Below are positions 34,703 through 59,988 of a DNA stretch of 64,000 nt, in pieces. Origin of the DNA: Platerodrilus igneus (Eukaryota; Arthropoda; Insecta; Coleoptera; Lycidae); NCBI GenBank assembly GCA_036346225.1, contig JARFIW010000139.1:8432001-8496000 (forward strand), written 5' to 3'. The notes under the pieces were generated by a model, which worked only from the letters and a program-made list of their open reading frames with translations, had not been told where the DNA came from and ran no database searches. The first letter of the stretch is position 1; each line of letters starts with the position of its first letter. The translations under genes were made by a program, and so were the position numbers.

Positions 34703-35203
34703 TGTAGCGGGCTACTACTAACGCGTTTCACTAATTTAAAACAAGTAGTAATAAAAGTCTTTATTACTCACTATTTATTGGTCCAATTAACAGTATATGC
34801 CTTATTTATAAATGTTTTCAGTCCAATTAACAATGAAGCACTATCACACTAATGCTATTTACAAGCACTAATATCTTCTTAAACTAAATTCTTAACCATA
34901 GCGCTATTGCCAACACTAAACGCTACTATTATTTATTTATTACACTTTTGTCTATTTATGTATTCTACAAGCTGACGGTACAATATACACTTCACATCAC
35001 CCAAATTTATTTTTACTCTTAGACTTATATTCGACATTCTGATATGGACTAACTCTGTACTTCATCAGCGATCTTATTTATACCCTGAATTAAATAGATG
35101 ATTCATTCTCTGGTATGTGCTCGAACATTCTCGGTTCCTGGAGAATATACATTGCTTACGACGCTTGTATGTTTGACGGGTTGCCTAATAGTAGCTCGTA
35201 ACA
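34703..35203 (-). repeat. Gypsy 3' LTR (501 bp)
   Basis: Begins TGTAGCGGGCTACT and ends CTCGTAACA in plus sense. It lacks 36 bp that the other LTR has near 59,775. The reading frame of the macro-domain ORF ends inside it at about 35,103. Confidence 0.88.
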
Positions 35204-35878
35204 CTGCCCCTTCTTTAAAACCGTTACGTCTCGTAACTGTAAATACATTGTGACGCCAATTCGCTAACTGATGACGGTATCGGCAGCTATCTCCTCTGGT
35301 GCATCCACCGCGTCGTTGTAAATAACAGTCAAAATTCTTTTCTTGGTCTTGGTAGGCAACCAGTTGATAGCAACAAACAAGAACCTGGACATTGGTTCCC
35401 TGGAAAATTACTTCTAGCATATTTCGGACTATTCTCCAATCTAAGCGATCCAGTCCACAGCCTAGCTTGGGCACCGCTAGTCTCGTTACTCCATTTTCCA
35501 TCATCTGAGCCTTAAGATTCAGCAAAGCTTCCCATAGATGTCCATAACTAGGTCTCTGCCATGAAGAATTTTTGATGACCAGGTAGTAAACATAACGATT
35601 TTTATCCTGAAGAACCAAAGCTTTTCCTACAGTTGGCTGCTGTTGTACTAATTCATCCTGACATCCAAACTTTTTCTTGAAAACAATAGCTATCCCTCTT
35701 GACATTTGCAGGTCCTGAGCTACGCAATGTGCAAGGGAATACTCTTCTGGTGCTCTAAACAGATCTTGCTGTTTTTCAACAAGAAATCTCGCCTTAGCGG
35801 AACCACCATACGCCGCCATGAAACTCTCAAAATCTACATTTGGCTCACGATTAATAACTCTTCGCACACCATTCTCAT
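35103..35878 (-). CDS. Macro domain (TARG1/OARD1-like) plus CCCH zinc finger, C-terminal extension of gypsy Pol
   Basis: The open frame runs from 35,963 to 35,103 (286 residues). Its first 28 residues are antisense of the inserted LINE, so the retrotransposon part starts at about residue 29. The macro domain (about 45-205) has HCVAQDLQMSRGIAIVFKKK and VPKLGCGLDRLDW. By comparison with TARG1, the catalytic Lys (131, in YYLVIKN) and Asp (172, in GCGLDR) are retained. The family removes ADP-ribose from proteins. A CCCH finger, C-x7-C-x5-C-x3-H at 213-231, suggests RNA binding. The frame has no internal stop, unlike gag and pol. In an intact element it would be the tail of Pol. Confidence 0.8.
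35869..35878. repeat. Target-site duplication CCATTCTCAT of the nested LINE, left
   Basis: This 10-mer is repeated at 54,641-54,650 immediately after the LINE poly(A). Both copies sit at the same codon phase of the gypsy frame. Confidence 0.88.
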
Positions 35879-36268
35879 CATCAGAGCACAAATGGGAGGA
35901 GGGTATACGCACTAGTCCCAAACATCCGAGACAGACTAAACTGTCACCACTTGGTCCCCTCACAAGGGCTCGTTCATTTTCTCACGGGGCATGGTTCTTA
36001 TCCAACCTACAGGAACCGCTTCGACCTCCAAGACAACAACAACTGCACATGTGGTGAGGTGGGGACACCGGAACATCTGGTGTTCCACTGCACCGAACTG
36101 CAACAGAATCTAGGAATGAACAGAACAATCCTACGGGACATACCCCTCTCGGACATGCTCTGGAACGGAAACATATTTCCTTAGCTAAACAGAATCACTC
36201 ACCAAACTACTACTATACTATACCAAAGGTACACAAACGGACTCTGACAGGACACACAAACACCATAC
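35879..36268 (+). mobile_element. Nested 5'-truncated LINE, part 1 (ORF2 end)
   Basis: The plus-strand frame encodes the end of a non-LTR reverse-transcriptase ORF of the Jockey/R1/LOA type: HFLTGHGSYPTYRNRF followed by a Cys-Cys-His-Cys knuckle, CTCGEVGTPEHLVFHC, and a stop at 36,182-36,184. The 3' untranslated region continues on the far side of the Polinton. The clade is not resolved from this short tail. Confidence 0.8.
36263..36268. repeat. Target-site duplication CCATAC of the Polinton, left
   Basis: CCATAC precedes AGTAGGGTAGCT at the left end and follows AGCTACCCTACT at the right end (53,185-53,190). Six bases is the known Maverick/Polinton duplication length. Confidence 0.93.
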
Positions 36269-39200
36269 AGTAGGGTAGCTAAGCCGGTTTGGCAACAGAG
36301 ATCCACAGCAAGATATGTATACGCCGGTTCGAGAACAATATGAACAGCTAAGCCGCTTTGGGAAACAAAACGTGCAGCAAGATATGTATACGCCGCTTTG
36401 AGAACAAAATTGTCTTTGTGTGTAAATTTGTTGCGTCGGGGGGTCGTTAGGTCTTTGGGGTGTGCGTTCGGCGGGGTCGTTAGATTTTTGTCGTGGAGTG
36501 GTGCGCGTGCGCTGGGGTGGAGATATTTTCTTAAGAAATTTTTTTAGCAGCGTTCCCGACGTTAAATATTAAATATTAAATTTTAAAAATGTTGTTTGTG
36601 TAGAAAATGGAGTTCACGTGTTGGTTCGTATTTTCTGGGGCAGGTTAAGCTAAAATTAAAACGCCGCGGTGAGGAATTTTTAATATTAGACAAACGCGTG
36701 CAAGTGGTAAAGAGTGTTTTAGCTCTCCTCATAAGCTGCGTTTTGTACGAAGTAGAAAATAAAATTGAGAAATATACGAAATGTTATATGATGGAGGTCA
36801 AATTTTAAACGTTTGCAGGTAAAATCTTGTAAAAAAGAAGTCGTTCACTTCTCGCAATTTCAATGTCACGATAAAATACTAAGAATTTGCATGCAGTCGA
36901 ATATAACCTCGTGTTTTTTATTTGGTAATATATATGTAAATCACGTCGACATTCGACTTTTAATATAATGTATTTAATTAACATAAGGTGTGTTGCAAAA
37001 ACATTTCAAGACAGGTATGTCGTATATTACCTTTTGGTTACATCATCCCAAAATAATTTATACAAGTACACTGAACTTGCAGTCGGATCTAACATATAAT
37101 CTTTTAATTATACCCGTATGAATTTAAAATATATGCAAATTATACCACCTTTCATCACGATTTATTTGACTCTCAAATTATTTGATTTGATCTTATATCA
37201 AGGCTTATGTATTAACTTTTACAACTCAAGGTGTAGCATCAAGGTTTTTACGTCACTCTCAAACTATAGAACTTAATAAAAATAGCTTTCCTTAGCACCA
37301 ATATCATTTAGAAAATATGTGTTTCATTAACATATACTTATTTATTAAATATTTCCTACCAAAATTTATTTAAAAAATTTAAAAGTTCTTTATTTTCATT
37401 TTCATATAGGTAAAATCACCACTTTGCTATGCTCTCGGCTACCTAGTTCCGGCTACTTTTCCAAGGTCGTTGTGACGTCATAGCCTTTTATAAATATAGA
37501 GCAATGTTATACTATTCTAAAATTCTAAAAAGAGTCTTTCTTACTAGCCACAAATACATACAGCTTGTAGAACGCGGATGTATCCAAGTCAGTCCATCGG
37601 CACATAAAATAATCTTTTAATCCTTTCCTCTTTCTCTAATAAGATGTTCTTTGTCTAACATATCTTTGTATTGTTCGCGTATTATCGCAGTGTCTTCCAA
37701 TTAGTCCAACTTTCGCCTTTTGCATGCATTTCCTCTAATTCCAGCTGTCTTTTCTTCCACTTACAGCGTATGGCGTGCATATGGGCAATTTCCTGCAGCG
37801 TCAACGGAGAGAGTTTACTGCCAATATTTACGCGTTGTCGTACAACCTCTGGGCGAATGTTAGGCGTACTTATCAACCCCGATACCGAAATGATTATTTC
37901 TTTTGGAATTGTAGAATATGGTGTTACAGATTGTGTAAAATATGTTACCTGCTTTAATGTAGCACTTGTGTAAGATTTTATTTTATCTTGGCTGTCGTCC
38001 TACTCTACTATCTCCAAATAATTTACAGGTAAATAGTTAAAACTAAAAGCTGAAAGCACATACTTTATCAATTTTTCCCTTTCTCTGGTTTTTCTGACAA
38101 CCTAATTTGCAAGCCCGTCAATTTCTTTGTATTGCCGTTCCCCAATACATGTACTGTAGCAGGTTATTATACACTAAACAGCAGCTATTTTGAAGCTTGT
38201 CCGATAACTTACTCCACATTTTGGCGGTACCGAGTACATTGGCACCTTTAGGAAGTATAACTTACTATCTTCCAATAAGGTTAAACAGTCTTTTAAGGGA
38301 TTATACACCCGTTCCGCACTGACATAGCTTCCAATTGTACAGTTTTATATTGTCGCTTCCAATTGCGTAATACCGTGTTCTTTGGTCAAAGTAGACGCGA
38401 ATGTTGCTCTTAAACGTGCATCTGGACAACGTAAAAATCTAGTATATAATTTCCAAGTTGTTTATTAACACCAGGATTTGTTATCTGACACACAAATTTG
38501 TTGTATATCTTAATTCTTACATTGGTTGTTAGCCATGTTAAACAATCGAATTTAAATTAAAATTAAGTTTAAATGGCTCCATGCTTGGCATTAAATATTT
38601 TTAAATTTTGTTATGTATAATGCCAGAATAAAAATTTTAGAATAGTATTACATTGTTCTTTATTTATAAAAGGCTATGACGTCACAACGACCTTGGAAAA
38701 GTAGCCGAAACTAGGTAGCAGAGAGCATAGCGAAGTGGTGATTTTACCTATATGAAGAATTTTGTTATGTTAAGTAAAAACGTGCAAGTGGTAAAGAATT
38801 TTTTAGCTTTCCTCAAAAGCTGTATTTTGTATGAAGTAGCGAATAACATTTAGAAAATATACGAAATGTGATATAATGGATCTAATTATAAAGTCTGCAT
38901 GTAAAATCTTGTAAAACATGTTGTTCACGATTTCATTACCAAGATAAAATAACAAGAATTCGCAGTCGAATATAACCTCGTGTTTTTATTGAAATTATAG
39001 CTCTCTGGTAATATATATGCAAATCATTCAACTTTTAATATAATGGATTTAATTAACATAAGGTGTGTTTGCAAAAACATGTTAAGACTATTTCCTTCTT
39101 GGTATGCAAATTATACCACCTTTCATAACGATTTATTTGACTCTCAAATAAAAAAATTAATTTGATCTTATATCAAGAGGTGTTCTTGCTTACATTTAGC

Positions 39201-39620
39201 AATTTCAATATATATTTAATATGTGTGTGTATATGTAAAAAACATGTTAAGACAGGTCACTCGTTATTTTATTCATGATTGATTGCATCACCAAAATAAT
39301 TTATACAACCACACTAAACTCGTACCCGGATCTATATAACCTTTAAATGTATGCAAATAATGTCGTTATTTAAAACGTGGTGAAGAATTTGGATGGGGAT
39401 GTACTCATTCTCAAATGCGGAATGGTACTCCATAAGGCGTTCTGAACGGAGGCTTTGCACGCATTAGGTGATTGAATACTTCGGAAATTTTTAGGTTAAG
39501 CAAAAACATGCACGTGTTGAAGAATCTCCGAGAATTTCAAAAATTATTTTTGTATTAAATATATAATATTAAAAGAAACACACAATATTTTAATGTTTTA
39601 TTTACAAAACTTACATTCTT
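36269..39620. repeat. Polinton left terminal inverted repeat, with insertion
   Basis: The outer about 1.1 kb pairs with 52,170-53,184 almost base for base. The remainder pairs in blocks with 50,955-52,170, apart from the 1.35-kb insert at 37,404-38,755. Inside the end is a 69-bp tandem pair (starts 36,277 and 36,346) with AGCTAAGCCG and GCAAGATATGTATACGCC. A G-rich stretch at 36,436-36,530 could form quadruplexes. Confidence 0.85.
37404..38755. mobile_element. ~1.35-kb inverted-repeat element inside the Polinton left arm
   Basis: Its ends are inverted copies of about 120 bp: TAGGTAAAATCACCACTT...GGTCGTTGTGACGTCATAGCC at the left and the reverse at the right (38,630-38,755). The right Polinton arm lacks it. 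A possible TA or TATA duplication flanks it. Inside, minus-strand fragments include a 64-residue frame with EIAHMHAIRCKWKKRQLELEE and a piece with RFLRCPDARLRATFAS. I recognise neither. It is probably a small DNA transposon of unknown superfamily. Confidence 0.6.
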
Positions 39621-40740
39621 TAATTGTCCCTATCTTTTGTAGGTGGCGGTAGCAGATTCTTATTTGAATAAAATATAGATAAGACTTCCACATTAAGAAA
39701 AATGTATCTTAGTTAAATGTACGGGGATTTTATTAATTATAGTTTAGTAAAGTGCATGGTAGTTAATGACCTCGAGGTTGTGATATTTATAACAACATAC
39801 CGATATATGTAAATTATATATGGAAACTGCATAACTTCAAATCATTTTAGCATAATTGTTAATTACCAAAATTCATAATTTCTACTTCCGTTAAAAACAC
39901 ATTAAGTAAGTAAGTTTATACATACCGATAATACAATGGTAAAAATTCTTCTACAACACATTAAACAGCTTATTTATATTTGCTACCTTAAACAACTATG
40001 CGAGTGCATATAAATGTCAGAGGAAGATTTCTTATCGTTCCCTTCCAATCTTAAAATTTATATCGTCAATAAAATAATAAACAGATTACTAATAATAGGT
40101 CGTCAATGGAACTAAAACAACATATACAAAATGTGTACAAATGAAAAGACCACTTATTAATTAATCATGACTGTAAATTTCTTTAAAGATTTGATATTCA
40201 TATTTAGTAACAATGTTGGTGCTATATATATAAACGACTTTTTATGAGCATAGTTTAAATTAAAATAACACCGAAATTTATGTAAATTTAATAGTTCTGG
40301 TTTATAGTTGGTTGATTTTCGGAGAATAAATTTTATGAAACTTAGGTTTAAGAAATTAATCATTTTGCAGGTGGGATTAAATAAAAATGTACTACTTTGA
40401 TGATAAAAACCTATGCAATGCTTTTATGTTTACACAACTATAACATACTTTAAAATTTAATACCTCGGTAGTAGAATATAATTTTTTAATTGTATTATTG
40501 TAACATAAAGTTTGCATAAAAAATGCAAAATACATATCCGTTAAGAGGAATTTTTCAATATGATACTTACAGATTCGTTAGTAAGTTTTACAATTAAACT
40601 TATTTCAAGACATTTTTGAAACACATTTACTAGTCTCAAGGAATATGTATGTATGTAGGTATAAAATATACAAATAAAAACACTACTTAATGTAAACATT
40701 ATTCTTTATTAAAAATGAATAATTGGTTATATGTACAAAC
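39621..40740. other. Polinton inner left arm, no gene
   Basis: AT-rich. Patches still pair with the right arm (for example 'catggtagttaatgacctcg' at 39,750 with 50,185), so the inverted repeats once reached further in. The frame at 40,157-40,363 has no motif. Confidence 0.5.
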
Positions 40741-40744
40741 CAGT

Positions 40745-41130
40745 TTTGAGTACAATTACATCTGTGGTTGCGCAATTGAATGACGAATGTCGTGTGGTAT
40801 GCTAGAAACACTTGTGTGAATTGGTGTAATACTTTAATTTATGTAGAGGAGTACACCCTAAGTCTTCTAGGTTAATAACATTTAGGTGTGGAAATTCATT
40901 GTAAATTGCCATCATCTCAAGATATATCGTGAAAGTTTCTGCTTAACCATATCTTTTGGTATTTGAAGCGAGCTGATAGACAGTTCCAAGAATATGATGG
41001 TTTCAGCACATATGTTATTGCAACTCCATTCGATAGGGATAGTTGTAAAACAGCCATTTCTTTAAACACAAAGTTATTATGTGCAATTTTAAACCTTTGA
41101 ACGTCGTCAACTAATGGACTATTAATTTTA
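40745..41130 (-). pseudogene. Unnamed Polinton-linked ORF with WLSRNFH and LEDLGC motifs
   Basis: Minus-strand pieces read SPLVDDVQRFKIAHNNFVFK, ITYVLKPSYSW, WLSRNFH and, after a break, VINLEDLGC with a trailing His/Cys-containing stretch. I recall similar unannotated proteins recurring with mobile elements in insect genomes, but I cannot name a function. It follows the major capsid gene directly and reads the same way. Confidence 0.45.
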
Positions 41131-42331
41131 GACTTCACTCACAACACTGGTTGCAGGATTGTAGCGGACCAAACGATCGTGTAGAATGAGGCAGTACGCT
41201 GTAGTGTGAGCTTTAAGCGCTTCTTTCATTTGAAATTCTAATCGTACGTCAACCGCTCCCACTTTCACTATTTCGTTTTGATGGGAACAATCGATGACTA
41301 CAAGTGGAGCGTGCGTTTGAAATTCATTGGGTGTTAATATCGGCTCGCTGATACCCCCGTAGTACGATTGTTGAAACTGTGCATACATCTCATATAGTAT
41401 AGAATAGCGATTGGTATCGAAATCAATGTTAAGATTATCGTAAGGATACATAGATGAACCCAGATGTAATTTCATATTGGTCAACTTACAGTGGTCGAAC
41501 TGACTGCGCCCCTTTTGCGTGATGTATCGGTTTGAAAGCAGACAATAACAAAACGTGGTTTCTCAACTTGACAATCCGTCTTCACGGCCCAGGTATGCGT
41601 GTGTGTTGTATGTAATTCTGGATATTCGTGTAGTTCCAACTGCGAAAGCTTATGTCCATGGTGGCATTGCGTTGAATATGTTTGAGTAGTTTTAAGCGCT
41701 CTGCATCTGCAACGGTTATATGTGGAATCCGACATGATATATGTGTAATGGTTATTTTGATTGACTCTTTGGTTTCAGTATTCGATATAGCTGAATCGTC
41801 AGGAATAATTCTAATAAGAATAAGCTCCTGTTTGATATTCAAAAGAATTTTCGGTAGTCCTCCGCAAATCCTAAAACCATGCGCAAGGGAATGCATACGT
41901 TGAAATGACCATTAGCATCAACGAGATCAAGCTTATCGATGGGGACCAACCGGCGTTTCTAAAGCGACGACTTTCGCTATAATCGTAGGATAGGAAATTT
42001 TAATAGTCGTAGTTATACCTGGATTACGAACGCGGTCAATAGTCTTTCCACCAAGTTCATAACGAATTTCATCAAATAAAAATAAAACTCCGTTGTTGAC
42101 AAAATCGGCTGTAGGCGAAACGCCACCATCTGACTTATTCATTGTACCCTCAATATAAATTACGCTGTCCCATGGTAGTGTATAGACATCTTCGTTTTCT
42201 ATTGGAATCCGTATAACATCGTTCTTCTCATACGTGGTATTGGAGTACGGAGTATGCATATGTTTGTCGGCATTGACGATGGTTGTATCAAATATAGCAC
42301 GTTGCGTAACATTTAAAATATTACTATCCAT
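41131..42331 (-). pseudogene. Polinton major capsid protein (double jelly roll), fragmented
   Basis: The start at 42,331 gives MDSNILNVTQRAIFDTTI, then YTLPWDSVIYIEGT, the conserved N-terminal jelly-roll part of insect Polinton capsids. Continuation is in at least three other frames: LLNIKQELILIRII, the segment with WAVKTDCQVEKPRF, and a C-terminal block, NIDFDTNRYSILYEMYAQFQ, ending near 41,130. The total is about 400 residues. In the family this protein forms the icosahedral shell. The breaks prevent a full product here. The neighbouring penton and protease support the call. Confidence 0.82.
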
Positions 42332-42485
42332 TTTAACTATGTAGCACTTTGAGTCCTAATGTTTGCAGAAATTTAACGTTTTCCGGTGTTAATCGGTGCA
42401 CTGGTGTCTTGTAACTGGTAAAGGTGCTGACAATGCGTCTATTAATAGGTTTTGGTGGTTTATGCTCATAGCGCAAAACCATTGT

Positions 42486-43182
42486 TTAAAGACGCTTTAG
42501 ATAAAGTCTAATCGTGATGGTTTCCCGACGAAAAGTGATGAGATTACCGTTTTGATCAACTATTTTAACAATGATGCGATCGATGATTCGTGTATTAAGT
42601 GGCATATAGGTGACGTTTACGGGGTTTTCAATAATCTTGTACCCTGCAGCAACTGCAGGAAAGAATTGATGCAAAATGTGTACAGGTTTGCTATTCCGAT
42701 ACGATCCGACCACAAGATTACATTCAATACATATTGAATTGATTGGAAAGACTTGTGCCGGATGGTCCGAAATAGCAGTAGTGAAGCTGGTAGTTTACGT
42801 TTCTCAAAACCCAGCAACGAAGCAAGTGAATTTGGTTGTGTAAAATCCACTATACCTGATGCTTTGATTTCTGTATGTAAACTGTTATTATTGGCTCGAA
42901 TATCAATAAGATAACGTTTGGATGAAGTGCGTTCACGGGGATCGTTCAGATTACGTCGTACGAACTTATTAATATCTGCCACTTCATAAGTTCCTTCTGG
43001 TAAAGTAAGCACGATGTCATCAATGTAAAATTTATTGTTCGCTTCCGTTACATTGGGAATTGAAAATATGTATCAAAGTTTGTAAGACCAATAACGTATT
43101 CATGGTCATCATCGAGAACAATTGGTGGGTTGATGATTGCGGTGAGCGTAGATTCAGTTCCAGTTAAAGTAAATGTGTACAT
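42486..43182 (-). pseudogene. Polinton minor capsid (penton-like) protein, fragmented
   Basis: The start is the ATG at 43,182, giving MYTFTLTGTESTLTAIIN, in a frame that breaks near 43,065. Later pieces show LPEGTYEVADINKFVRRNL, FTQPNSLASLLGF, GSYRNSKPVHILHQFFPA and VTYMPLNTRIIDRIIVKIVD, the typical order of the single-jelly-roll partner of the major capsid. It would occupy the vertices. Three or more frames are used, so no intact product remains. Confidence 0.78.
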
Positions 43183-43343
43183 GTTCGGTGGTTGACGATA
43201 AACTAACAACTAGTCGTATTCGTAGTTGGGATGGGGTAATAAAAGCAAATTCCTGAAACACTTGCAATATATGGTTTTAATTAAACACTTTTATACAAAA
43301 CAGTTAAAAATACACTAAAATCAAATAATATATAACGTTGTTA

Positions 43344-43711
43344 GAAACGTAACGGTGGACTATTTTGCAGTAAAAATTTCAATACGAAGTGTCCACAGGT
43401 AACAGTGTTAAACGGTTGAAATTGTTCATAATTATAATAGAGAGTGCATGGTCCTGATGAGGTTAAGTATTTGACAAGTTCCTCGGAGGTCGTAGATTAC
43501 CAATGCTATCATAATAGACTGCCCTTGAACCATCTTTTTTGTACGCGGTCCAATGAGTTCCCACACCACGTGTAGTATCATGATTAAGAATACCACATTC
43601 TCGCCAACGAATTGTGTTTGGAAGTGAATTGCGCATGAATATTCCACGAAAGTGGGATATTGGTAAACGTTTTATGTATTTGTTCAAGTCAACATTGGTC
43701 AACGCTCGCAT
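43344..43711 (-). pseudogene. Adenain-like cysteine protease
   Basis: The N-terminal frame has IKRLPISHFRGIFMRN and the catalytic His in GTHWTAY, followed by YYDSIG with the acidic partner. After a frame change near 43,460 the sequence shows the catalytic Cys in TCGHFVLKFLL and stops near 43,344. In the family it matures capsid proteins. The catalytic residues survive but in two frames. Confidence 0.8.
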
Positions 43712-43719
43712 AGGTAGGT

Positions 43720-44566
43720 TTAACGAATGCGTTGAGTTTTTTTTCGTTGTCTTTGTTTATGCAAACCTTGCCCATGTGTAAGATAAGGCTTTAGGTACAG
43801 TCCATGTCCACGACAAAAAGATTTCAAATAAAGACCTTTTCCAAGTGTCACAGCCTCTTGTGCCATATTATTTTGTTTCGCTTCCTCCAATTGTTGTTGA
43901 CTAAGTTTAGCATCGTCGACAGCTTTTGCAATCCCAGCTGCTCCACCCGACAGCGCTCTAATTGCGGAGAAAACTGCAAAAATAGGTATCAAAGGTAAGA
44001 AACCACCAGTTTTGGGTACAGGAATTACACGTAGGATGCCACGAACCTCATCCGCTATATCTTTAATGGGTGTCACTGCAAGTTTAGCAGTTTTAATAAG
44101 ATCAGTGGGACGAACGTTTTTAATGTGTTCCCAAATGGTGCGAATTAAACGCTTGAATGGTATACCATGTCCTGTACGTAGATGCTGACCACGTCGTTTT
44201 CCCTTAAACCTTATCGTTTTCTTATGACAACCCATACCAAATTTAACTTTGGCATTCATTGCAGAACCAACTGCAAACGCAGCAAGTTTTCACCTAACGA
44301 AGCGTCGGGTGCAGTACGACGTTTTGTGCTGTTTCGGCAAGACGTCGATCAGCTTGGTGTCGGGTTGTTAAGTCTGTAGAAAGATCGTAGGCGATGTCGT
44401 GTAGTTTGCAGGCTTCGTCTAAGGGATTACGACCTATATCACCACGCTCGAGGCGTTTCTGAAGCTTAGTACCCGGTCCACAGAAGCGATAGCCTGGTAA
44501 ATGTAATTCTACCGGTAAACGATTGATAGCACTATTGAGTAACCCGTAGCCACGATAGGATTTCAT
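43720..44566 (-). pseudogene. PLA2-domain virion protein
   Basis: The frame from 44,566 has LPGYRFCGPGTKLQKRL, a Ca-binding-loop pattern, and LDEACKLHDIAYD, with the His-Asp pair of parvovirus-type phospholipase A2 domains. After one break near 44,290 a second frame (44,259-43,720) continues with NAKVKFGMG, a basic region, a hydrophobic Gly/Ala stretch (GGFLPLIPIFAVFSAIRALS) and a basic tail. I read them as one gene. Such domains occur in Polinton and adintovirus virion proteins and are thought to act on membranes during entry. Confidence 0.78.
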
Positions 44567-44659
44567 TAATCTTGTCAGTCGAAAGGTTTAAAGGAGACTG
44601 GTCATGCGTGTAGAATTACTCGCTTAAATGCTTACCATACTGCAATTACGTTTTAGTAT
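44567..44659. promoter_or_regulatory. Divergent intergenic region between the two Polinton arms
   Basis: Only 93 bp separate the minus-strand PLA2-domain gene from the plus-strand ATPase, so both transcripts probably start from here. I see no clear TATA box. Confidence 0.4.
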
Positions 44660-45282
44660 ATGGATAGAATGCGTCTGGTAAAGCAACAATTGGCGTTGCC
44701 AATTACGGACCACAACTGCAGCAACAACACTAACGTGCAAAAGCATGGACTACTATTACCATCAACAATACGGTGTATCATTACAGGTCCATCCAATTGT
44801 GGTAAAACTAATGTAGTCATCGGTCTCTTGAAACATCCGAATGGTGTACGCTTTGAAAACGTTTATCTCTACTCAAAATCCTTGTATCAACCAAAGTATC
44901 AGTACCTAGAGAGGTTATTACAACCAATAAAAGAAATAGGATATTTTGCGTTTAACAAATGGGATGCAATTGTTACTCCAGCGGATGCAAAACCTAATTC
45001 GATATTTATTTTCGATGACGTGTCGTGCGATAAACAAAATGTAATGCGAGAATATTTTTCTTTAGGTCGACATAAGGCCATTGATTGTTTTACCTATGTC
45101 AGACCTATTCCAAAATACCTAAACAATTGATTAGAGACAATGCTAATGTCCTAGTGCTATTCAAACAAGACGAACTCAATTTAAAACACGTATACGCTGA
45201 CCATGTAAACACGGATATGTCGTTTAACCGGTTTAAAGAATTGTGCGGCGTATGCTGGCGAGATCGGTATGGGTTCTGGTGA
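44660..45282 (+). pseudogene. A32-like (FtsK/HerA-type) genome-packaging ATPase
   Basis: The first frame (156 residues) has Walker A, TGPSNCGKTN, and Walker B, SIFIFDDVSC. It breaks near 45,120. The next frame carries LVLFKQDELNLKHVYADHV and FKELCGVCW to 45,282. In the family the ATPase pumps DNA into the capsid. About 205 residues match the compact Polinton version. A single frame change is the only defect I see. Confidence 0.88.
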
Positions 45283-46355: not shown

Positions 46356-46382
46356 ATTGTGCGACTTGTTATTCATTATCAC

Positions 46383-49480: not shown

Positions 49481-49502
49481 CTGTATGATTGTTGTGGTTT
49501 TG

Positions 49503-49602: not shown

Positions 49603-49609
49603 TTGCCTG

Positions 49610-50950: not shown

Positions 50951-50954
50951 ATAA

Positions 50955-53184
50955 AACATTCAAATTTTGTGTGTTTCTTTTAAAATTATATATTTAATAC
51001 AAAAATATTTTTTAAAAATCTCGGGGATTCTTCAGCACGTGCACGTTTTTGCTTAACCTAAAATCTCCGAAGTATTCAATCACCTAATGCGTGCAAAACC
51101 TCCGTTCAGAACGCCTTATGGAGTACCATTCCGCATTTGAGAATGAGTACATCTCCATCCAAATTCTTCACCACGTTTTAAATAACGACATTATTTGCAT
51201 ACATTTAAAGGTTAAATTTTAGATCCGGGTACGAGTTCAGTGTGGTTATATAAATTATTTTGGTGGTGCAATCATGAATAAAATAACGAGTGACCTGTCT
51301 TAACATTGCACACACACACCAATATTTTAAATTAAAACCATTATAAAATACGAGTCGAATAATTTCTCCTATTCTTTTTGATATTTAATACAAAATAATG
51401 GGGCAGAGCCCCGTTTAGGGCACGTTTAGAAGCTCCCTTCCCCACCATTCATCATTTTGAAAGTGATTATGTCATCCACCACATTTCCTATTTTTGCTTA
51501 ACCTAAAATCTCTCTTTAATTAACTAAAGCAACGAGAATAAAAACAATGACGAAGCTCTAAAGATCACCGCTAAATTCTTCACTACATGCACGTTTTTGC
51601 ATAACCTATAAATTTTTTATCACGTTTGTGCAATTAAACGAGTTATATATATACAATGTCTAATACGTCATCTACATACAATCACCAAACCGCTAAAAGT
51701 AAAAGAATTTTTATTACCACATAAATTAAATGTATAATTACATTTAAATATTTAAATATATTCAAATTGCTAAAATGTAAGCAAGAACACCTCTTGATAT
51801 AAGATCAAATTAATTTTTATTTGAGAGTCAAATAAATCGTTATGAAAGGTGGTATAATTTGCATACCAAGAAGGAAATAGTCTTAACATGTTTTTGCAAA
51901 CACACCTTATGTTAATTAAATCCATTATATTAAAAGTTGAATGATTTGCATATATATTACCAGAGAGCTATAATTTCAATAAAAACACGAGGTTATATTC
52001 GACTGCGAATTCTTGTTATTTTATCGTGACATTGAAATTGGAGAAGTGAACGACTTCTTTTACAAGATTTTACCTGCAAACGTTTAAAAATTTGACCTCC
52101 ATCATATAACATTTCGTATATTTTTTTAATTTTATTTGCTACTTCCAGAAGAAGAAAATGAAGATTTACTTAGTTTACTAAACGAATTTTTGGAGCAAAA
52201 TATTTAATGAATAAATAAATATTAAAGAAACACATATTTTCTAAATGATATTGGTGCTAAGGAAAGCTATTATTATTACGTTCTATAGTTTGAGAGTGAC
52301 GTTAAAACCTTGATGCTACACCTTGAGTTGTAAAAGTTAATCCATAAGCAAGAAATCCTTGATAAAAGCAAGTTCAGTGTACTTGTATAAATTATTTGGG
52401 ATGATGTAACCAAAAGGTAATATACGACATACCTGTCTTGAAATGTTTTTGCAACACACCTTATGTTAATTAAATACATTATATTAAAAGTCGAATGTCG
52501 ACGTGATTTACATATATATTACCAAATAAAAAACACGAGGTTATATTCGACTGCATGCAAATTCTTAGTATTTTATCGCGACATTGAAATTGCGAGAAGT
52601 GAACGACTTCTTTTTTACAAGATTTTACCTGCAAACGTTTAAAATTTGACCTCCATCATATAACATTTCGTATATTTTCTCAATTTTATTTGCTACTTCG
52701 TACAAAACGCAGCTTATGAGGAGAGCTAAAACACTCTTTACCACTTGCACGCGTTTGCCTAATATTAAAAAATTCTTCACCGCGGCGTTTTAATTTTTAG
52801 CTTAACCTACCCCAGAAAAATACGAACCAACACGTGAACTCCATTTTCTACACAAACAACATTTTTTTAAAATTTAATATTTAATATTTAACGTCGGGAA
52901 CGCTGCTAAAAAAATTTCTTAAGAAAATATCTCCACCCCAGCGCACGCGCACCACCCCACGACAAAAATCTAACGACCCCGCCGAACGCACACCCCAAAG
53001 ACCTAACGACCCCCCGACGCAACAAATTTACACACAAAGACAATTTTGTTCTCAAAGCGGCGTATACATATCTTGCTGCACGTTTTGTTTCCCAAAGCGG
53101 CTTAGCTGTTCATATTGTTCTCGAACCGGCGTATACATATCTTGCTGTGGATCTCTGTTGCCAAACCGGCTTAGCTACCCTACT
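50955..53184. repeat. Polinton right terminal inverted repeat
   Basis: Pairs with the left arm. It holds a 69-bp tandem pair at its outer end in mirror order and repeated copies of a TTAGGTTAAGCAAAAACGTG-like motif (for example 51,027-51,060, 51,491-51,510, 51,575-51,611, 52,738-52,769). It ends with CCCTACT followed by the CCATAC duplication. Confidence 0.85.
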
Positions 53185-54461
53185 CCATACAAACCCCACA
53201 CATCACAAATACCACAAACACAGATCACACGAAACACAGAAGTTTGACGTAACGCATCGAACGTGCAATACAAAAGCACAATCCACCCAACACACATGGG
53301 AACCGACAACAAACAAGCAGCATTCTCCCAAGGACATACCAGGAACCACCTGTCTCCTGAAGATCTACCAGATGGCTCGTGAATCCTGACGAACGGGAGT
53401 AATACCAGTGAAAACGAAGTGAAAATAGTGAGAACGGCAAAAGTGCGGCAAACGTACCTCAAACACAAGTTTCTCCCAGAACACTTATTAGCATTAGAAT
53501 ACTAACATTAGTAGGATAAGGACTCAATACTAACCATCTAAAATAAAAAATACAACTAACTAAAATAAACAAGAGAAAATACTAACCAAATTCGTAATTG
53601 CTTTAAGAAATCTAACCCTAGCTTCAGTAACGTAATGTTTATATTTCCAATGTTGTAGCGCAACTACAAATTACTACAGGGGAAATATTCTGACAACATA
53701 ATTACAACACATCAGCACGACAAAATACACACAAACACGCACAAGCACACACACACACACAACAGAGACTGTACGTGGCCTCCCTGGTTTCTGGCTGCCG
53801 ACAGCCAGGACACGTACAGGAACGCGTACTTCTCGGTTTCTGATTTCCGGCTACCGGCGGTTGGAAACCGGGAGAGGGACACAGTCCCAAGGACCTCACC
53901 ACAGACATAAGCACACGCACACACAAACATGAAAACAATAAACACACACACCATTATAGCACACCGGCACGACAAAACACACACAAACACGCTCGTACAC
54001 GTGTTTGCACGCACACGCACAGATGTATACACACGCGCGCACACATACACACCAGGGACTGTACGTGGTTTCCCTGGTTTCCGGCTGCTGACGGTCAGGA
54101 CACGTACAGGAATGCGAACTTCTCGGTTTCTGATTTCCGGCTGCCGGTGGTCGGAAGCTGGGAAGGACAGCAGTCCCAAGGACATTACCACAGACAGAAA
54201 CACACACACGCACCCTCACGCGCGCACAGACACAAACACACACACACGCACACATACACATACACACCAGGGACTGTACGTGGTCCCCCTGGTTTCCGGC
54301 TGCCGACGGCCAGGACACGTACAGGAATGCGAACTTCTTGGTTTCTGATTTCTGGCTGCCGACGGTCGGAAGCTGGGAAGGAAAGCAGTCCCAAGGACAT
54401 TACCATAGACAGAAACACACACACATACACACACTCACGCACCCACACGCGCGCACAGACA

Positions 54462-54495
<34 letters not shown>

Positions 54496-54640
54496 TATTT
54501 CTAAACGCAAATAATATAAAACTAACTAATATAACTTAAGGTAGCAAATAAATCTGTTAGATTTCTTAGGAGTAACAGGTTTGCTGTAATTTTTAGGTAG
54601 CAGACTAATTGTAATGTTAGAATAAATAAAAAAAAAAAAA
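53185..54640 (+). mobile_element. Nested LINE, part 2 (3' untranslated region and poly(A))
   Basis: Continues the LINE 3' untranslated region after the right CCATAC duplication. It includes the CA-rich minisatellite (53,735-54,490) and ends in AATAAATA plus an A run at 54,621-54,640. The CCATTCTCAT duplication follows at once. Confidence 0.82.
53735..54490 (+). repeat. Three-unit GC-rich minisatellite with CA linkers
   Basis: Three copies of about 130-140 bp, each with GGACTGTACGTGG or similar, CTGGTTTC(T/C)GGCTGC, CAGGACACGTACAGGAA and CAGTCCCAAGGAC, alternate with runs of CA repeats (starts about 53,763, 54,055, 54,268). Long frames on both strands here are artefacts of the CA repeat. The unit contains its own short inverted phrases and would fold strongly as RNA. 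Confidence 0.82.
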
Positions 54641-55692
54641 CCATTCTCATTACTCAAGTCCCCCTGGTTGTTTCCAGCATAAGATGTTAAACGGTCAAAG
54701 TGTACCACTTTCGGTTTACCACGGGGAGATCTTCTGATCCGACACACTACATCATTAATTCTTTTTAACACTTCGTACGGACCTTCCCATTGTCTTTGTA
54801 GTTTTGGCGACAATTCACGTTTTCTTTGTGGATGGTACAACCACACTAAATCTCCCGCTTGGTAACCACCTTCTTGTGCTCTCGTGTCATATTGTGATTT
54901 CATTCGATCGCTTGCTGCCTGGATATTCTTTCAGACGTTTTCGTGAATGCTATTTGATCTTTCACGAAGCTTACTAACGTAATCTTCAACTGCGATCTCT
55001 TCTCCAGGTTTAAATCCAAACTGAAGATCACATGATAGCCGCAATTCACGTCCTAACATTACGCAAGCGGGCGAGTATCCTGTGCTGTCATGTACCGAAG
55101 ATCGGTACGCCAGTAGGAACAAATGTAAATATTGGTCCCAGTCTCGTTGATGTTGAGAGACAACTTTGGCTAGGTACTTTCCTAACGTCCTGTTCATTCT
55201 TTCAACCATTCCATCCGATTGGGTATGAAGCGGCGTAGTTCTAGTTTTCCTGATTCCAAAATGCTTGCAGACGTTTTGAAACAACGTTGATTCGAAGTTC
55301 CGACCTTGATCGGAGTGTAATTCCAACGGAACTCCAAAGCGACAAAACAACTCCCTCACTATTACATCTGCAACCGTCTCGGCTTCTTGGTTAGGTATAG
55401 CATACGCCTCCGGCCGTTTGGTAAAATAATCCATTGCAACCAAGATGTATTTATTTCCTTTTTCTGATTCAGGAAACGGACCAGCTATATCAATGGCCAC
55501 CCTCTCAAAAAGATTCCCTACGTTATACTGTCTCTTTGGGGCTTTCCGTTTTGTGACCGGGCCATTTCCAGAGGCACACAACTCATATTTCCGGCACCAC
55601 TCCTTCACATCTTCTTTGCAGTTCACCCAATAGAATCTTTCTCTCACTCTTTCGAGAGTTTTTTCACACCCTTCGGAAATACCATCGTGCAA
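54641..55692 (-). pseudogene. Gypsy integrase
   Basis: The frame 55,692-54,931 has the zinc region end WCRKYELC, the core with AIDIAGPFPE (Asp), HSDQGRNFE (Asp) and GMVERMNRTLG (Glu). The C-terminal module follows in the next frame (from 54,903): LVWLYHPQRKRELSPKLQ and WEGPYEVLKRINDVV, the GPY/F type. A break at about 54,920 separates them. The second frame reaches the LINE insertion with no stop, and its phase equals that of the macro-domain frame at 35,870. Integrase inserts the cDNA into host DNA. Confidence 0.88.
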
Positions 55693-57740
55693 GTGCGCAA
55701 CACTTCCGGCACTCTGCTTCTCGGCACTATCACTTGAAGTCTCTCAGTGCCATCTTCACATTCCAGGCGTCGTTTCAAGATTCTATTTTCAATCACCAAG
55801 GAGTCCCACTGTGTCTTCAGGCTCCTACTTATAATACTAATTTCTTCCCAAGCTGGTCGTTGTCCTCTACTTTTCCACTCAATAATACGTCCCAATTCGG
55901 CGTCATTCTCCTGGTCTTCTCGTATTCTTTCGGGTTGCCAAGTATCATCGGTTACCGTCATTCTATGGATGACACTTATTTTCTCTTCCATCTTGGAGCA
56001 ATGATTGCAGTCTACCGGACAAGGTCTCCTTGACAGAGCGTCTGCATTCCGATGGCTAGTTCCTACACGATGTTCTGTGTCAAAGTCATATTCCTGTAGC
56101 CGCTCTATCCACCTTGCAACTTGCCCTTCAGGATTTCGAAACTGCAGTAACCATTTTAGTGCAGCATGGTCTATTCTCAACAGAAATTTACGGCCGTATA
56201 CGTACTTATAAAAGTACTCTACGGATTTGACGACGGCCAACAGATCCCTTCTTGTCGCACAATAGTTCCTTTCTGGCCCCGACAAGACCTTGCTGAAATA
56301 CCTAATAAGTTTTTCTTGTCCGTCCTGCACTTGAGAAAGAACGTTTCCTATAGCTGTGTTACTGGCATCGGTATCCAACACAAATTTCCCCTCCATCCGT
56401 GGATAACTCAGAATTGGTGCTGTAACTAGTAGCCGTTTCAGTTGTTCAAATGCGTTGTGGCAGTCGTCATTCCAATTATATTCTTGTCCATTTTCGGTTA
56501 ATTTCGTCAACGGTTTGGCAATATTCGCAAACCCAAGTATAAAACATCGGTAATATGTGCACACTCCTAGAAAACTGCGTAGTTGGTGTACATCTGCTGG
56601 TGTAGGCCACTCTTGTACCGTTTTCATCTTGTCAGGGTCAGTTCTTATTCCGGTCTCCGAAACGACATGTCCTAGGTATTTCACCTCTTTTCCAAATAGG
56701 TGACACTTCTTGGGGCTCAATGTAAGGTTTGCCCCGCGTAATCTTTGGAATATCTCCTCTAGGTTCTTAAGGTGTTCTTCAAAAGACCGGCCTAACACTA
56801 TCACGTCGTCTAGGTACATCAGACATGTTTTCCAGGACAGCCCATGCAGTATCGACTTCATCAAACGTTCAAAAGTAACAGGAGCATTGCATAATCCAAA
56901 TGGCATGACCTTGAACTGCCAAAATCCAGTTCCAATTGCAAGCGCAGTTTTATCTTTATCGTTTGGCTCCAAGCCTACCTGCCAGTATGCCAGTATCCGC
57001 TTTTCAAGTCCAAGGTCGAAAACCATTTAGATCCGAATAGAGTATCCAAGGTGTCATCAATTCTGGGGCAAAGGATAGCTGTTTTTCTTTGTCACATTGT
57101 TTAACCGCCGGTAGTCTACACAAAACCTTGTCGACCCATCCTTTTTCTTGACAGGCACTACCGGGGATGCCCATAGACTATTCGAGGGTACAATCACTCC
57201 CCGTTCTTCCATGTCGGTGATAATTTGCTTGGCCTCCTTACGTTTTGCCAAAGGAAGCTGCCTCGGGTGTTGTCTTATCGGTTGCGCATCTTCAGTATTG
57301 ATCTTATGTTGCACAACATTCTTCCTTACTTTCTCACTATCAGTGCAAACACACTTCGATATCGTCCGACCAGTTCTTTTACCTTGCCCAGTTGGTCGCC
57401 GTTTAATCCTTGAGACGAAGGTATCAGTATATCCAGCAATTTCTGTGAGCAACCGTTGGCTGGTTTATTTTTTGTGTCGTCCACACAACGTTTAATATGG
57501 CATACTGGAATGCAACTTCCCACAATCATGTCTTTCTTCAGGGTCACCGTATGCGGATTAATCTTTAGCCCCCTTATTGGTATCATATTTCGAAACTTTA
57601 CCTGCGTTCTTCTAATCAGTAATCCCTCCTGACTCATTCCCGATTCAGTTGCTTCCATCAAGCATATTTGTCCTTCCCGGATCGTACCATCCGGCCGTCC
57701 CATTACCATCATTTCTGCCTTCTCGGGTATTTTCATATCA
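55644..57740 (-). pseudogene. Gypsy reverse transcriptase and RNase H
   Basis: Upstream frames (57,736-57,057) carry the linker after protease and the first polymerase block, with [20 protein letters not shown] and [13 protein letters not shown]. After a gap of about 30 bp the 460-residue frame from 57,026 has GFWQFKVMPFGLCNAPVTFE, MYLDDVIV (YLDD at residues 71-74), the connection region, and RNase H with FVLDTDASNTAIGNVLSQ and RIDHAALKWLL. A chromo-like or inter-domain region precedes integrase. Motifs are complete and frame breaks lie only at the start. Confidence 0.9.
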
Positions 57741-58305: not shown

Positions 58306-59396
58306 GGTTGATTATTTCTTCTATGCTGTTCTGCGATTGACCAGGTTCTTCTAAGGCAGACCGAACTTTGTTACTCACCCTGTGTGATGTCTGCTTAGCT
58401 GCTTCAAGTTCAAGCGCATGGGCCAGTGCGTCATCTAACATTTTTGGCCATGCTAATTTTAGCGCTTGCTGTATTTAGCTGTCTTTAACGCCATCCACAA
58501 ATGTTTGAACAGCCAATTGTTCGAGGAAACCATCTGGTGCCGTTGGATATGGCAATCTAACTAATCTGGCAATGTCAGCTTCGAATTCTTGCAGGCTTTC
58601 ATTTGTCTTTTGCGAGCGGTTCTTAACTTGTGCATGGTATACCTGTTGAAGGTGAACGTCTCCATATCTCATCTCAAGCTTCGATGTTAAAAGGCCGTAA
58701 TCATTCTGCTGGTGATCGGGAATGGTTAAGAGCTTGCCCCTGGGGCCACTATTAGGGAGACTGCCTTCTCTTTGTTGCACCAACCTTTGACTATTGCAGC
58801 AGCTTCAAATTGTTTCAAATATGTGGGCCAAGGTGTTTTACCATCGAACGTGGGTGGTTTCATTTTAAATTTTGAAGGTATTGACTCGCTTCCTTCCATG
58901 CTTCTTATTTCTGGAATGTTCTGATTTACAACGTGGTTTACTAATTCAAGTGGCCACGTTGTTAGTGAAATCACTCGTTTTTGCAGCCTGATCACATCTT
59001 CCATTTTTACCAATTTACTGTCCAACTTTTGCTCTACTGTTTTTACCTGTTCAGTGAAATCTTCTTTCAATGCAATGGAGCTTTCTATTAATCTTTGTTC
59101 TAACGTGGCTGTCTTTTCATTCAACTTTTCTTCCAATTTCGCAGCATATTTACTTAACTTTTCTTCTATTTTCTCAGCATTTTCACTAAGTGTCACTTCC
59201 ATACCGTATTTAAACTCTTTAAGAGTGTCACTTCTAGATTATCCGACCTCTCTTCCATTTTCTCAGCATTTTCACTAAGTGTCACCTCTAGTTTAGCCGA
59301 TCTCGCTTCTTCCATACCGGATTTAAAATTCTTAAGGAAATTTATTAAAGTTTCTGCGTCCATTTTACTTTGGCTTCTTGTAACAGGCATATACAA
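58172..59396 (-). pseudogene. Gypsy gag
   Basis: The start ATG is at 59,396, giving MYMPVTRSQSK, a common gypsy gag opening. Next is a long coiled coil built from related 'SENAEK(I/M)EE' phrases, two of which look like a tandem duplication (59,180-59,290). A capsid part follows with KPPTFDGKTPWPTYLKQFEA and LQEFEADIARLVRLPYP. It ends with a CCHC knuckle, CWSCGEVGHIQRRC, near 58,220. At least three frameshifts break it. Gag forms the particle and binds the RNA. Confidence 0.85.
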
Positions 59397-59432
59397 ACTA
59401 CTTAAATGTCTTTTAAATTAATCACTATATAT

Positions 59433-59450
59433 ACCCCACACCTGGCACCA
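59433..59450 (-). other. Gypsy primer-binding site
   Basis: On the minus strand TGGTGCCAGGTGTGGGGT begins one base after the 5' LTR. The TGG start and its position fit a tRNA 3' end. I do not assign the tRNA. Confidence 0.6.
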
Positions 59451-59451
59451 G

Positions 59452-59988
59452 TGTAGCGGGCTACTACTAACGCGTTTCACTAATTTAAAACAAGTAGTAA
59501 TAAAAGTCTTTATTACTCACTATTCATTGGTCCAATTAACAGTATATGCCTTATTTATAAATGTTTTCAGTCCAATTAACAATGAAGCACTATCACACTA
59601 ATGTTATTTACAAGCACTAATATCTTCTTAAACTAAATTCTTAACCATAGGTCTATTAACAACACTAAACACTACTATTATTTATTTATTACACTTTTGT
59701 CTATTTATGTATTCTACTAGCTGACGGTACAATATACACTTCACATCACCCAAATTTATTTTTACTCTTGGACTTTCAAAAGCGTATAACTAACTTTACA
59801 CGATATAATTTATATTCGACATTCTGATGTAGACTAACTCTGTACTTCATCAGCGATCTTATTTATATCCTGAATTACATAGATGATTCATTCTCTGGTA
59901 TGTGCTCGAACATTCTCGGTTCCTGGAGAATATACATTGCTTACGGCGCTTGTGTGTTTGACGGGTTGCCTAATAGTAGCTCGTAACA
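59452..59988 (-). repeat. Gypsy 5' LTR (537 bp)
   Basis: Partner of 34,703-35,203, with the same ends. It has 36 extra bases near 59,775-59,810 and about a dozen substitutions. Confidence 0.88.

What the first reader, a model, noticed from the sequence alone, without database searches (positions are those of the whole stretch)
34703..59988. Gypsy retrotransposon whose Pol appears to end in a macro domain and CCCH finger
Seen: the integrase C-terminal frame (54,903 down to 54,641) and the macro-domain frame (35,878 down to 35,103) are interrupted only by a LINE with 10-bp target duplications. The duplicated 10-mer sits at the same codon phase on both sides, with no stop, so before the LINE insertion integrase read straight into the macro domain. 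Known: TARG1/OARD1 macro domains remove ADP-ribose from proteins, and macro domains in RNA viruses counter host ADP-ribosylation. Inference: the element may carry an ADP-ribosyl hydrolase to blunt host PARP-type control or to act at DNA breaks during integration. The catalytic Lys and Asp are retained.
Basis: partly seen in the sequence, partly recalled or inferred. Interest (0 to 1): 0.88.

Follow-up and report, generated by a model that had tools for sequence, protein, structure and literature searches.

The report
Jumping gene carrying an ADP-ribose remover
A very abundant, beetle-type retrotransposon has a copy of an animal enzyme domain that strips ADP-ribose marks (TARG1-like), plus a zinc-finger motif, fused to the end of its integrase and appears to keep it under selection, which suggests that the element manages its host's ADP-ribose signalling.

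Summary
The window holds one dead Ty3/Gypsy copy (minus strand; LTRs 59988-59452 and 35203-34703) whose integrase frame originally ran into a TARG1/OARD1-type macro domain and a CCCH motif. Of 29 other integrase loci, 29 carry the macro domain directly after integrase, without the insert. Genome-wide, 1,928 places link an integrase 17-mer to a macro 11-mer; 2,199 link it to an 11-mer inside integrase. Macro codons are constrained (omega 0.37; wrong frames 0.79 and 1.10). Integrase-macro fusions occur in four beetle families. In an integrase tree the 14 macro-bearing rows all fall in one clade of 18: probably one old capture. The catalytic Lys and Asp are kept (38 of 40, 35 of 37 rows). Best reading: an integrase-borne ADP-ribosyl hydrolase acting at cDNA ends, integration sites or host PARP products; activity and function are inferred. 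Macro-domain frames are known in fish endogenous retroviruses; my searches listed no integrase-fused one.

The parts
59452..59988 (-). 5' LTR of the Gypsy copy (TG...CA); flanking 4-bp duplication ATAT at 59989-59992
   Evidence: 15 differences in 501 aligned bases against the 3' LTR, K2P 0.031, plus a 36-base length difference
58411..59400 (-). gag region, broken, ends approximate; open piece 58726-59238 with a coiled-coil stretch
   Evidence: Pfam Apolipoprotein far below its cut-off, taken as coiled coil; gag by position and by eye
55644..57464 (-). reverse transcriptase and RNase H frames, broken
   Evidence: Pfam RVT_1 4.8e-23, RT_RNaseH_2 7.2e-32, RT_RNaseH 2.4e-30 in frame 55644-57026; frame 57057-57464 judged by eye
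54931..55743 (-). integrase H2C2 and core (rve), ends at an in-frame TGA 54933-54931
   Evidence: Pfam Integrase_H2C2 5.2e-10, rve 1.1e-15
54641..54930 (-). integrase C-terminal domain (p58_C/SH3 type) up to the insertion point
   Evidence: Pfam Integrase_p58_C 5.9e-14
54641..54650 (.). target duplication ATGAGAATGG (minus strand), integrase side
35869..35878 (.). target duplication ATGAGAATGG (minus strand), macro side
   Evidence: single copy in uninterrupted elements
35879..54640 (+). inserted block: 5'-truncated LINE (plus strand, poly-A end near 54.63 kb) holding a nested Polinton 36269-53184
35361..35868 (-). TARG1/OARD1-type macro domain; Lys84 equivalent in YLVIK, Asp125 equivalent in GCGLD
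   Evidence: AlphaFold2 model, core blocks pLDDT 89-98
35217..35360 (-). CCCH motif C-x7-C-x5-C-x3-H and linker
   Evidence: below Pfam cut-off here; omega 0.42 over the stretch to the PPT
35204..35216 (-). polypurine-tract-like stretch AAAGAAGGGGCAG inside the open frame
   Evidence: (sequence), directly before the TG of the LTR
34703..35203 (-). 3' LTR; the macro/CCCH frame runs about 33 codons into it and stops at 35105-35103; flanking ATAT at 34702-34699

Best explanation
What it is: a member of a beetle lineage of Ty3/Gypsy LTR retrotransposons whose Pol polyprotein is RT-RNaseH-integrase-macro-CCCH, the macro part captured, probably once, from a TARG1/OARD1-type animal protein and kept. 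How it most likely works (inferred): the macro domain travels as the C-terminal part of integrase, or is cut from it by the element's protease. It removes ADP-ribose through the TARG1 Lys/Asp dyad, from acidic side chains or from nucleic-acid ends. Its likely place is the element's cDNA ends, the integration complex or local chromatin, where host ADP-ribosylating enzymes would otherwise mark or silence the element; the CCCH motif would help it hold RNA or DNA. Shown: fusion, copy number, selection, clade, conserved dyad. Inferred: enzyme activity, substrate, site and benefit.
For: 29 of 29 non-self integrase loci carry the macro frame directly downstream; at least 9 of the 29 have one open frame from the IN C-terminus to the GCGLD motif of macro, at least 5 of 29 also through CCCH (motif match). 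Genome counts: 1,928 IN-to-macro links against 2,199 within-IN links, reversed-pattern controls 0. Macro protein search: 150 of 150 scored hits at 90% identity or more, 13 of 150 with a stop inside, 6 of 150 in open frames of 1,400 aa or more (the best of 13,869 first-look candidates, so biased to intact ones). Omega macro 0.37 (codon bootstrap 0.25-0.53, 45 rows), CCCH to PPT 0.42 (0.24-0.77, 44 rows); wrong frames of all four parts 0.79-2.09. Dyad Lys 38 of 40, Asp 35 of 37. TARG1 E 8e-37. IN tree: the 14 macro-bearing rows all in one clade of 18, SH-aLRT 100, none among the other 59 rows. Macro tree: clade of 37 of 58 rows, 100/98. TARG1 cleaves ADP-ribose from Glu/Asp and nucleic-acid ends with Lys84/Asp125 (passages of PMC9411070, PMC7050489). 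ADP-ribosylation is tied to retroelement control: several gypsy-superfamily elements rise in Drosophila without PARP-1 (passages of PMC7712786), and mammalian SIRT6 silences L1 by mono-ADP-ribosylating KAP1 (passage of PMC4695847).
Against: No biochemical evidence. The loop that is MGAGIA in human TARG1 is mostly MSRGIA in the elements (S in 41 of 45, R in 40 of 45 element-type rows), near the expected ligand loop (recalled), so specificity or activity may differ. The first Gly of GCGLD is A or S in 22 of 38 element-type rows with a letter there. Two rows lack the Lys (R) and two the Asp (N, E). Four rows inside the clade lack the domain (P0061, P0062, P0065, P0069), so it may be dispensable; P0062 keeps a CCCH-side remnant and the others may be broken or cut short. 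The PARP-1 paper itself says that the effect could be indirect. The CCCH motif is weak in this copy.
Confidence: 0.55

Rival explanations
1. Reader, not eraser: the macro domain binds ADP-ribose and tethers integrase to ADP-ribosylated chromatin or DNA breaks, as the chromodomain at the integrase end of chromoviruses is thought to tether integrase to marked histones.
For: Position at the integrase C-terminus is that of the chromodomain in chromoviruses (start of the abstract of PMC3605345 in the listing); macro folds bind ADP-ribose; the loop change to MSRGIA may alter turnover.
Against: The Lys/Asp pair that TARG1 uses for hydrolysis is kept in 38 of 40 and 35 of 37 rows.
Confidence: 0.25
2. 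RNA-side role: macro plus CCCH acts on the element's own RNA or on Gag, for example by removing ADP-ribose from RNA ends or during packaging, and is released from integrase.
For: CCCH fingers are often RNA binders (general knowledge); the stretch with the motif is under constraint (omega 0.42); TARG1 acts on phosphate ends of nucleic acids (PMC7050489 passages).
Against: In the proteins that hold both, macro follows integrase directly; one protein outside the clade, P0058, has macro after a Gag-like part instead (by eye).
Confidence: 0.14
3. A host TARG1 gene copy was transduced by, or landed in, this one Gypsy copy and is a passenger.
For: Gypsy Pol usually ends with integrase: 59 of 59 rows outside the clade lack macro.
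Against: 29 of 29 other copies carry it, 1,928 linked places, purifying selection, fusions in other beetles.
Confidence: 0.01
4. The domain once helped but is now losing use; constraint is a remnant of the past.
For: Four macro-less rows inside the clade; macro is less similar between species than integrase (for example 54 against 71% for P0053).
Against: Copies of this genome show omega 0.37 although post-insertion decay is included; long open frames exist.
Confidence: 0.05

Closest known systems
Fish epsilon-like endogenous retroviruses with an extra macro-domain frame (Basta et al. 2009, as cited in PMC4977317; I saw one passage of the review, not the original)
   Same: A reverse-transcribing element carries a macro domain
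   Different: There described as an additional open reading frame in fish retroviruses; here fused in frame to integrase, TARG1 type, with a CCCH motif, in insect Gypsy elements
Human TARG1/OARD1/C6orf130
   Same: Macro domain, 8e-37, Lys84 and Asp125 equivalents kept
   Different: Stand-alone host enzyme; loop MGAGIA instead of MSRGIA; no integrase, no CCCH
Chromoviruses (Ty3/Gypsy with a chromodomain at the integrase C-terminus; abstract start)
   Same: Extra domain appended to integrase
   Different: No chromodomain found here; the added domain is a hydrolase-type macro domain
Insect retrotransposons with captured viral SF1 helicase domains (PMC6338049, part 1 of 4 read; a word search of its text found no macro domain; PMC5563155, listing only)
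   Same: Accessory domain gained by an insect retroelement protein and kept
   Different: Helicase from RNA viruses, different elements, different proposed role
Macro domains of positive-strand RNA viruses (recalled)
   Same: Selfish element carrying a macro domain, proposed to counter host ADP-ribosylation
   Different: Another branch of the fold (recalled) and viral polyprotein context; here TARG1-like and integrase-fused

Membership tests
Ty3/Gypsy LTR retrotransposon | Two LTRs with TG...CA and a short target duplication | tested here: met
   LTRs 59988-59452 and 35203-34703, duplication ATAT
Ty3/Gypsy LTR retrotransposon | Pol order RT-RNaseH-integrase with Gypsy-type domains | tested here: met
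   Pfam RVT_1, RT_RNaseH, Integrase_H2C2, rve, p58_C in that order
Ty3/Gypsy LTR retrotransposon | Polypurine tract before the 3' LTR | tested here: met
   AAAGAAGGGGCAG at 35216-35204
Ty3/Gypsy LTR retrotransposon | tRNA primer site after the 5' LTR | not tested
   -
Errantivirus (env-bearing Gypsy) | env frame between pol and the 3' LTR | tested here: not met
   In this copy only the macro/CCCH frame lies between the inserted block and the PPT; in 29 of 29 non-self loci macro follows integrase directly, their remaining 3' parts were not scanned for env
Chromovirus | Chromodomain at the integrase C-terminus | tested here: not met
   No Chromo hit in frames 54526-54930 or 35103-35981 at E 0.1
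TARG1/OARD1 (ALC1-like) macro domain | Sequence of the TARG1 branch | tested here: met
   phmmer 8e-37 to C6orf130 against 9.3e-5 for the next family; in the tree with OARD1-like rows
TARG1/OARD1 (ALC1-like) macro domain | Macro fold | tested here: inconclusive
   Confident model (pLDDT 83.1, pTM 0.74) with alternating strands and helices, but fold comparison was switched off
TARG1/OARD1 (ALC1-like) macro domain | Catalytic Lys84/Asp125 pair | tested here: met
   Both in the window copy; K in 38 of 40 and D in 35 of 37 element-type rows with a letter there
TARG1/OARD1 (ALC1-like) macro domain | ADP-ribosyl hydrolase activity | not testable with these tools
   needs biochemistry
CCCH zinc finger | C-x7/8-C-x5-C-x3-H with a family score over cut-off | tested here: inconclusive
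   Spacing C-x7-C-x5-C-x3-H present; PF00642 13.8 bits under its cut-off of 20.5 here, 22.3 in P0053 and 20.5 in P0052

The most novel reading that the evidence does not exclude
A whole lineage of beetle Gypsy elements carries an integrase-fused, active ADP-ribosyl hydrolase as a counter-defence: host ADP-ribosylating enzymes mark retroelement cDNA ends, integrase or silencing factors at the insertion site, and the element removes the mark, so ADP-ribosylation is an anti-retrotransposon defence in insects.
Probability: 0.35. Interest if true: 0.87.

Novelty: new variant of a known kind. Interest (0 to 1): 0.74.

Why it matters
Macro domains of RNA viruses suggest that ADP-ribosylation restricts selfish genomes. 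An LTR retrotransposon lineage with thousands of copies in one genome that keeps a TARG1-type macro domain on its integrase would point to ADP-ribosylation as a control of retrotransposition in insects, and gives a testable enzyme, macro-less relatives and several species to compare. It also adds a macro domain to the domains known to be fused to an integrase C-terminus.

Tried and rejected
Rejected: single-locus capture of a host gene; chance open frame; chromodomain or env in that place of this copy. Led nowhere: relatives of the fusion in viral contigs and prokaryote contigs gave no element. One search gave 2 and one search gave 5 distant macro matches (29-39% identity) over the macro part only; their neighbourhoods were not read. 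Literature: ten searches in a library of open-licence papers; one search was about TARG1 residues and about PARP. The listings, several of them cut (20 of 2,564, 20 of 628, 10 of 28, 20 of 31), show no description of an integrase-macro fusion in an LTR retrotransposon. Passages were read in PMC4977317, PMC9411070, PMC7050489, PMC7712786, PMC4695847 and PMC8195603, and part 1 of 4 of PMC6338049. Most subscription papers and Repbase are not held, so 'not in print' is not shown. The total count of the integrase 17-mer alone was not obtained; the within-integrase link count served as yardstick instead. Structure comparison could not be run. The host species was not identified; 'beetle' for this genome is inferred from the relatives.

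Limits of counts: the 40 integrase hits scored are the best of 3,508 candidates; I received 30 loci, one of them the window itself. The IN tree (quick method) used 77 rows: the L047 copy and proteins with at least 230 aligned integrase residues and ids up to P0130, out of 176 proteins; one search listed 120 of 3,050 hits, and its length limit excludes proteins over about 1,265 aa. The 45 element-type and 22 other rows were sorted by me, and the 45 include fragments without an integrase part. The macro tree took 58 rows with at least 115 aligned residues; its bootstrap had not settled. Omega values are pooled pairwise (not independent) and include decay after insertion; L042 was dropped as it overlaps L026, and rows with 35% or more gaps were dropped.
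Full report
Checking the observation. The Gypsy copy lies on the minus strand between direct repeats, two blocks at 97% identity. Reading the ends gives a 5' LTR 59988-59452 and a 3' LTR 35203-34703, both starting TGTTACG and ending in CA, flanked by ATAT. The LTRs differ at 15 of 501 aligned bases (K2P 0.031) plus 36 unaligned bases; at a rate of about 3e-9 per site and year (recalled) that is around 5 million years. RT, RNase H, integrase zinc finger, core and C-terminal domain are in Gypsy order. The frame 35981-35103 holds a macro domain: Pfam Macro 25.1 bits over a cut-off of 22; the five best PDB sequences are all C6orf130/OARD1 (TARG1) at E 8.1e-37 to 3.5e-36, the next family at 9.3e-5. 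A CCCH motif follows, under Pfam cut-offs in this copy.

What interrupts the frame. The 10-mer ATGAGAATGG flanks an 18.8-kb insert (35879-54640). Its outer parts are a plus-strand LINE: a C-terminal ORF2 piece at about 35.88-36.18 kb (LINE-type judged by eye) and a poly-A end near 54.63 kb. Inside is a Polinton at 36269-53184: terminal inverted arms of 321 bases at 100% with further paired blocks inwards, a 6-bp duplication GTATGG on both sides, an rve integrase frame (9e-13) and double-jelly-roll capsid frames (2.7e-49 and 2.7e-8; 4 of the 7 Polinton frames scanned had no Pfam match). So three elements are nested: Polinton in LINE in Gypsy.

Other copies in the genome. The window lies in a 2.71-Gb genome. 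A search with integrase DNA alone, which does not select for macro, gave 3,508 first-look candidates, 40 scored, 30 loci, one being the window. Of the 29 others, 29 carry the macro frame, and at the junction the integrase and macro pieces of the window meet with only the duplicated bases shared (overlap 4-11 bases), that is, the site without the insert is seen 29 times. In at least 9 of 29 one open frame runs from the integrase C-terminus to the GCGLD motif of macro, in at least 5 of 29 also through CCCH (motif match, so a lower bound). An exact pattern from the integrase tail followed after 70-95 bases by a macro 11-mer occurs at 1,928 places (994 + 934; reversed control 0). The yardstick, an 11-mer inside integrase followed by the same tail, occurs at 2,199 (1,125 + 1,074; control 0). 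Macro is thus linked to the integrase tail 88% as often as integrase's own upstream part. A macro protein search gave 13,869 first-look candidates; 150 were scored, 150 at 90% identity or more, 13 with a stop inside, and 6 of 150 sit in open frames of 1,418-1,467 aa, the size expected for a whole Pol with macro (inference). The LTR search listed 41 matches, 40 of 5,211 first-look candidates being scored.

Selection. Codons of 41-45 rows (copies and the window) were compared pairwise (NG86 with Jukes-Cantor, pooled). Omega is 0.23 for integrase core (41 rows), 0.27 for its C-terminus (44), 0.37 for macro (45; bootstrap over codons 0.25-0.53) and 0.42 for the CCCH-to-PPT stretch (44; 0.24-0.77). 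The same data read in the two wrong frames give 1.10 and 0.79 for macro, 1.15 and 2.09 for CCCH (a first run on 33-34 rows agreed). Because decay after insertion is included, true constraint should be stronger. The pairs are not independent.

Relatives elsewhere. A macro-frame search of 5.8 billion proteins gave 51 hits, 17 of 51 with Integrase_p58_C in the precomputed domain list. Those with an organism name are, besides two OARD1-like proteins (a hoverfly, a sponge), from beetles: Molorchus, Exocentrus, Aromia, Gonioctena, Pyrocoelia, Aquatica, Holotrichia, Carabus; about half have no name. A second search (7 hits) added Harmonia, Callosobruchus and a contig of the mildew Erysiphe pulchra, a third a further Callosobruchus protein (P0067). 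Integrase and macro on one protein were seen in named members of four families: Cerambycidae (Molorchus, Exocentrus, Aromia), Lampyridae (Pyrocoelia, only the integrase tail), Coccinellidae (Harmonia) and Chrysomelidae (Callosobruchus) (families, those of Exocentrus and Aromia recalled). The Gonioctena, Aquatica, Holotrichia (Scarabaeidae) and Carabus (Carabidae) macro proteins have no integrase part, being partial or chimeric predictions, so there the fusion itself was not seen. The Erysiphe contig is probably beetle contamination, as its integrase and macro pair with Harmonia (inference).

Origin. In an integrase tree of 77 rows the 14 macro-bearing rows (13 proteins and the L047 copy) lie in one clade of 18 (SH-aLRT 100, stem 0.31); the 59 rows outside have none by BLAST. 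Parsimony counts 5 changes, which fits one gain and four losses or breaks. P0062 keeps a CCCH-side remnant; P0061, P0065 and P0069 stop 6-18 residues after the integrase match and may be truncated. In a macro tree of 58 rows, element macros form a clade of 37 (100/98). Of these 37, 8 did not meet my integrase-tail motif, but P0006 and P0016 do show an integrase match; the other 6 look like fragments. Next to the clade stand P0056/P0057 (proteins with a lysine-rich N-terminal part; joined at 92/84) and, weakly (82/33), P0058 of Carabus, then OARD1-like rows. One capture from a TARG1-like animal gene is the simplest account. The element loop reads mostly MSRGIA where human TARG1 has MGAGIA (S in 41 of 45, R in 40 of 45), but this is not exclusive: of 21 other rows with a letter there, 4 have S and 4 have R.

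Active site and structure. Positions equal to TARG1 Lys84 and Asp125 hold K in 38 of 40 and D in 35 of 37 element-type rows that have a letter there (45 rows in all; exceptions R, R, N, E). AlphaFold2 gives pLDDT 83.1 and pTM 0.74, macro-core blocks 89-98, residues 171-200 with the CCCH motif 54-75. A fold comparison could not be run. TARG1 chemistry (Lys84/Asp125, acidic residues, O-acetyl-ADP-ribose, nucleic-acid ends, DarT-type thymidine adducts) is taken from passages of PMC9411070 and PMC7050489; the latter review prints Glu125 for the same position.

Mechanism. A kept dyad plus selection argue for an enzyme rather than a passenger. Its place at the end of integrase suggests that it reaches cDNA, the integration complex and chromatin. 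Drosophila without PARP-1 shows higher levels of several gypsy-superfamily elements, though the authors allow an indirect cause and some elements fall (passages of PMC7712786). In mammals SIRT6 silences L1 by mono-ADP-ribosylating KAP1 (passage of PMC4695847), so an element that erases ADP-ribose has a plausible target. I therefore favour an ADP-ribose eraser that shields the element at or near integration (0.55 for the whole statement), with reader/tether (0.25) and RNA-side roles (0.14) as rivals. Nothing here measures activity.

Against what is known. A review mentions macro-domain proteins among extra frames of epsilon-like fish endogenous retroviruses (PMC4977317, one passage). An opinion paper on accessory domains of retrotransposons names chromodomains, exonuclease and helicase domains in the part that I read (PMC6338049, part 1 of 4) and a word search of its text found no macro domain. 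A paper on animal immunity domains reports other domain fusions to retrotransposons, not macro in the passages seen (PMC8195603). None of ten literature searches listed an integrase-macro fusion (several lists were cut). I rate it a new variant of a known kind: Gypsy elements with a captured C-terminal domain.

Noticed in passing
window 36269-53184: A 16.9-kb Polinton/Maverick (321-base perfect terminal arms, 6-bp duplication GTATGG, rve integrase, double-jelly-roll capsid frames) is nested inside the LINE that interrupts the Gypsy copy.
   Followed up: partly
window 35103-35216 and proteins P0001, P0007, P0052, P0064: The Pol frame runs through the polypurine tract and into the 3' LTR; the encoded FKEG here and the LRRGQC-like motif in several relatives suggest that the tract is also coding.
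   Followed up: partly
one search matches across G000: Many of the listed copies share one- or two-base length differences at A and C runs of the integrase tail (AAAAAGG/AAAAGG, CCCCT/CCCT/CCT), either a spread broken subfamily or homopolymer errors of the assembly; they would inflate the number of broken frames.
   Followed up: no
P0058 (Carabus blaptoides): A predicted protein with a Gag-like N-terminal part, a TARG1-type macro domain and an integrase-tail-like C-terminus (by eye), outside the main clade: perhaps a second retroelement with a macro domain.
   Followed up: partly
P0056 and P0057: Unnamed proteins with a lysine-rich, probably disordered N-terminal part and a TARG1-like macro domain are the nearest relatives of the element macro domains in the tree; possible host source.
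   Followed up: partly
P0053 (contig of Erysiphe pulchra): A fungal assembly contig carries this beetle-type element with a gag-like part after the macro/CCCH end; probably contamination by a mildew-associated beetle.
   Followed up: no
P0087 (Rickettsia endosymbiont of Ceutorhynchus) and P0072 (Ips erranti-like virus 3): Related macro-less Gypsy Pol sequences are filed in public data under a bacterium and as a virus.
   Followed up: no
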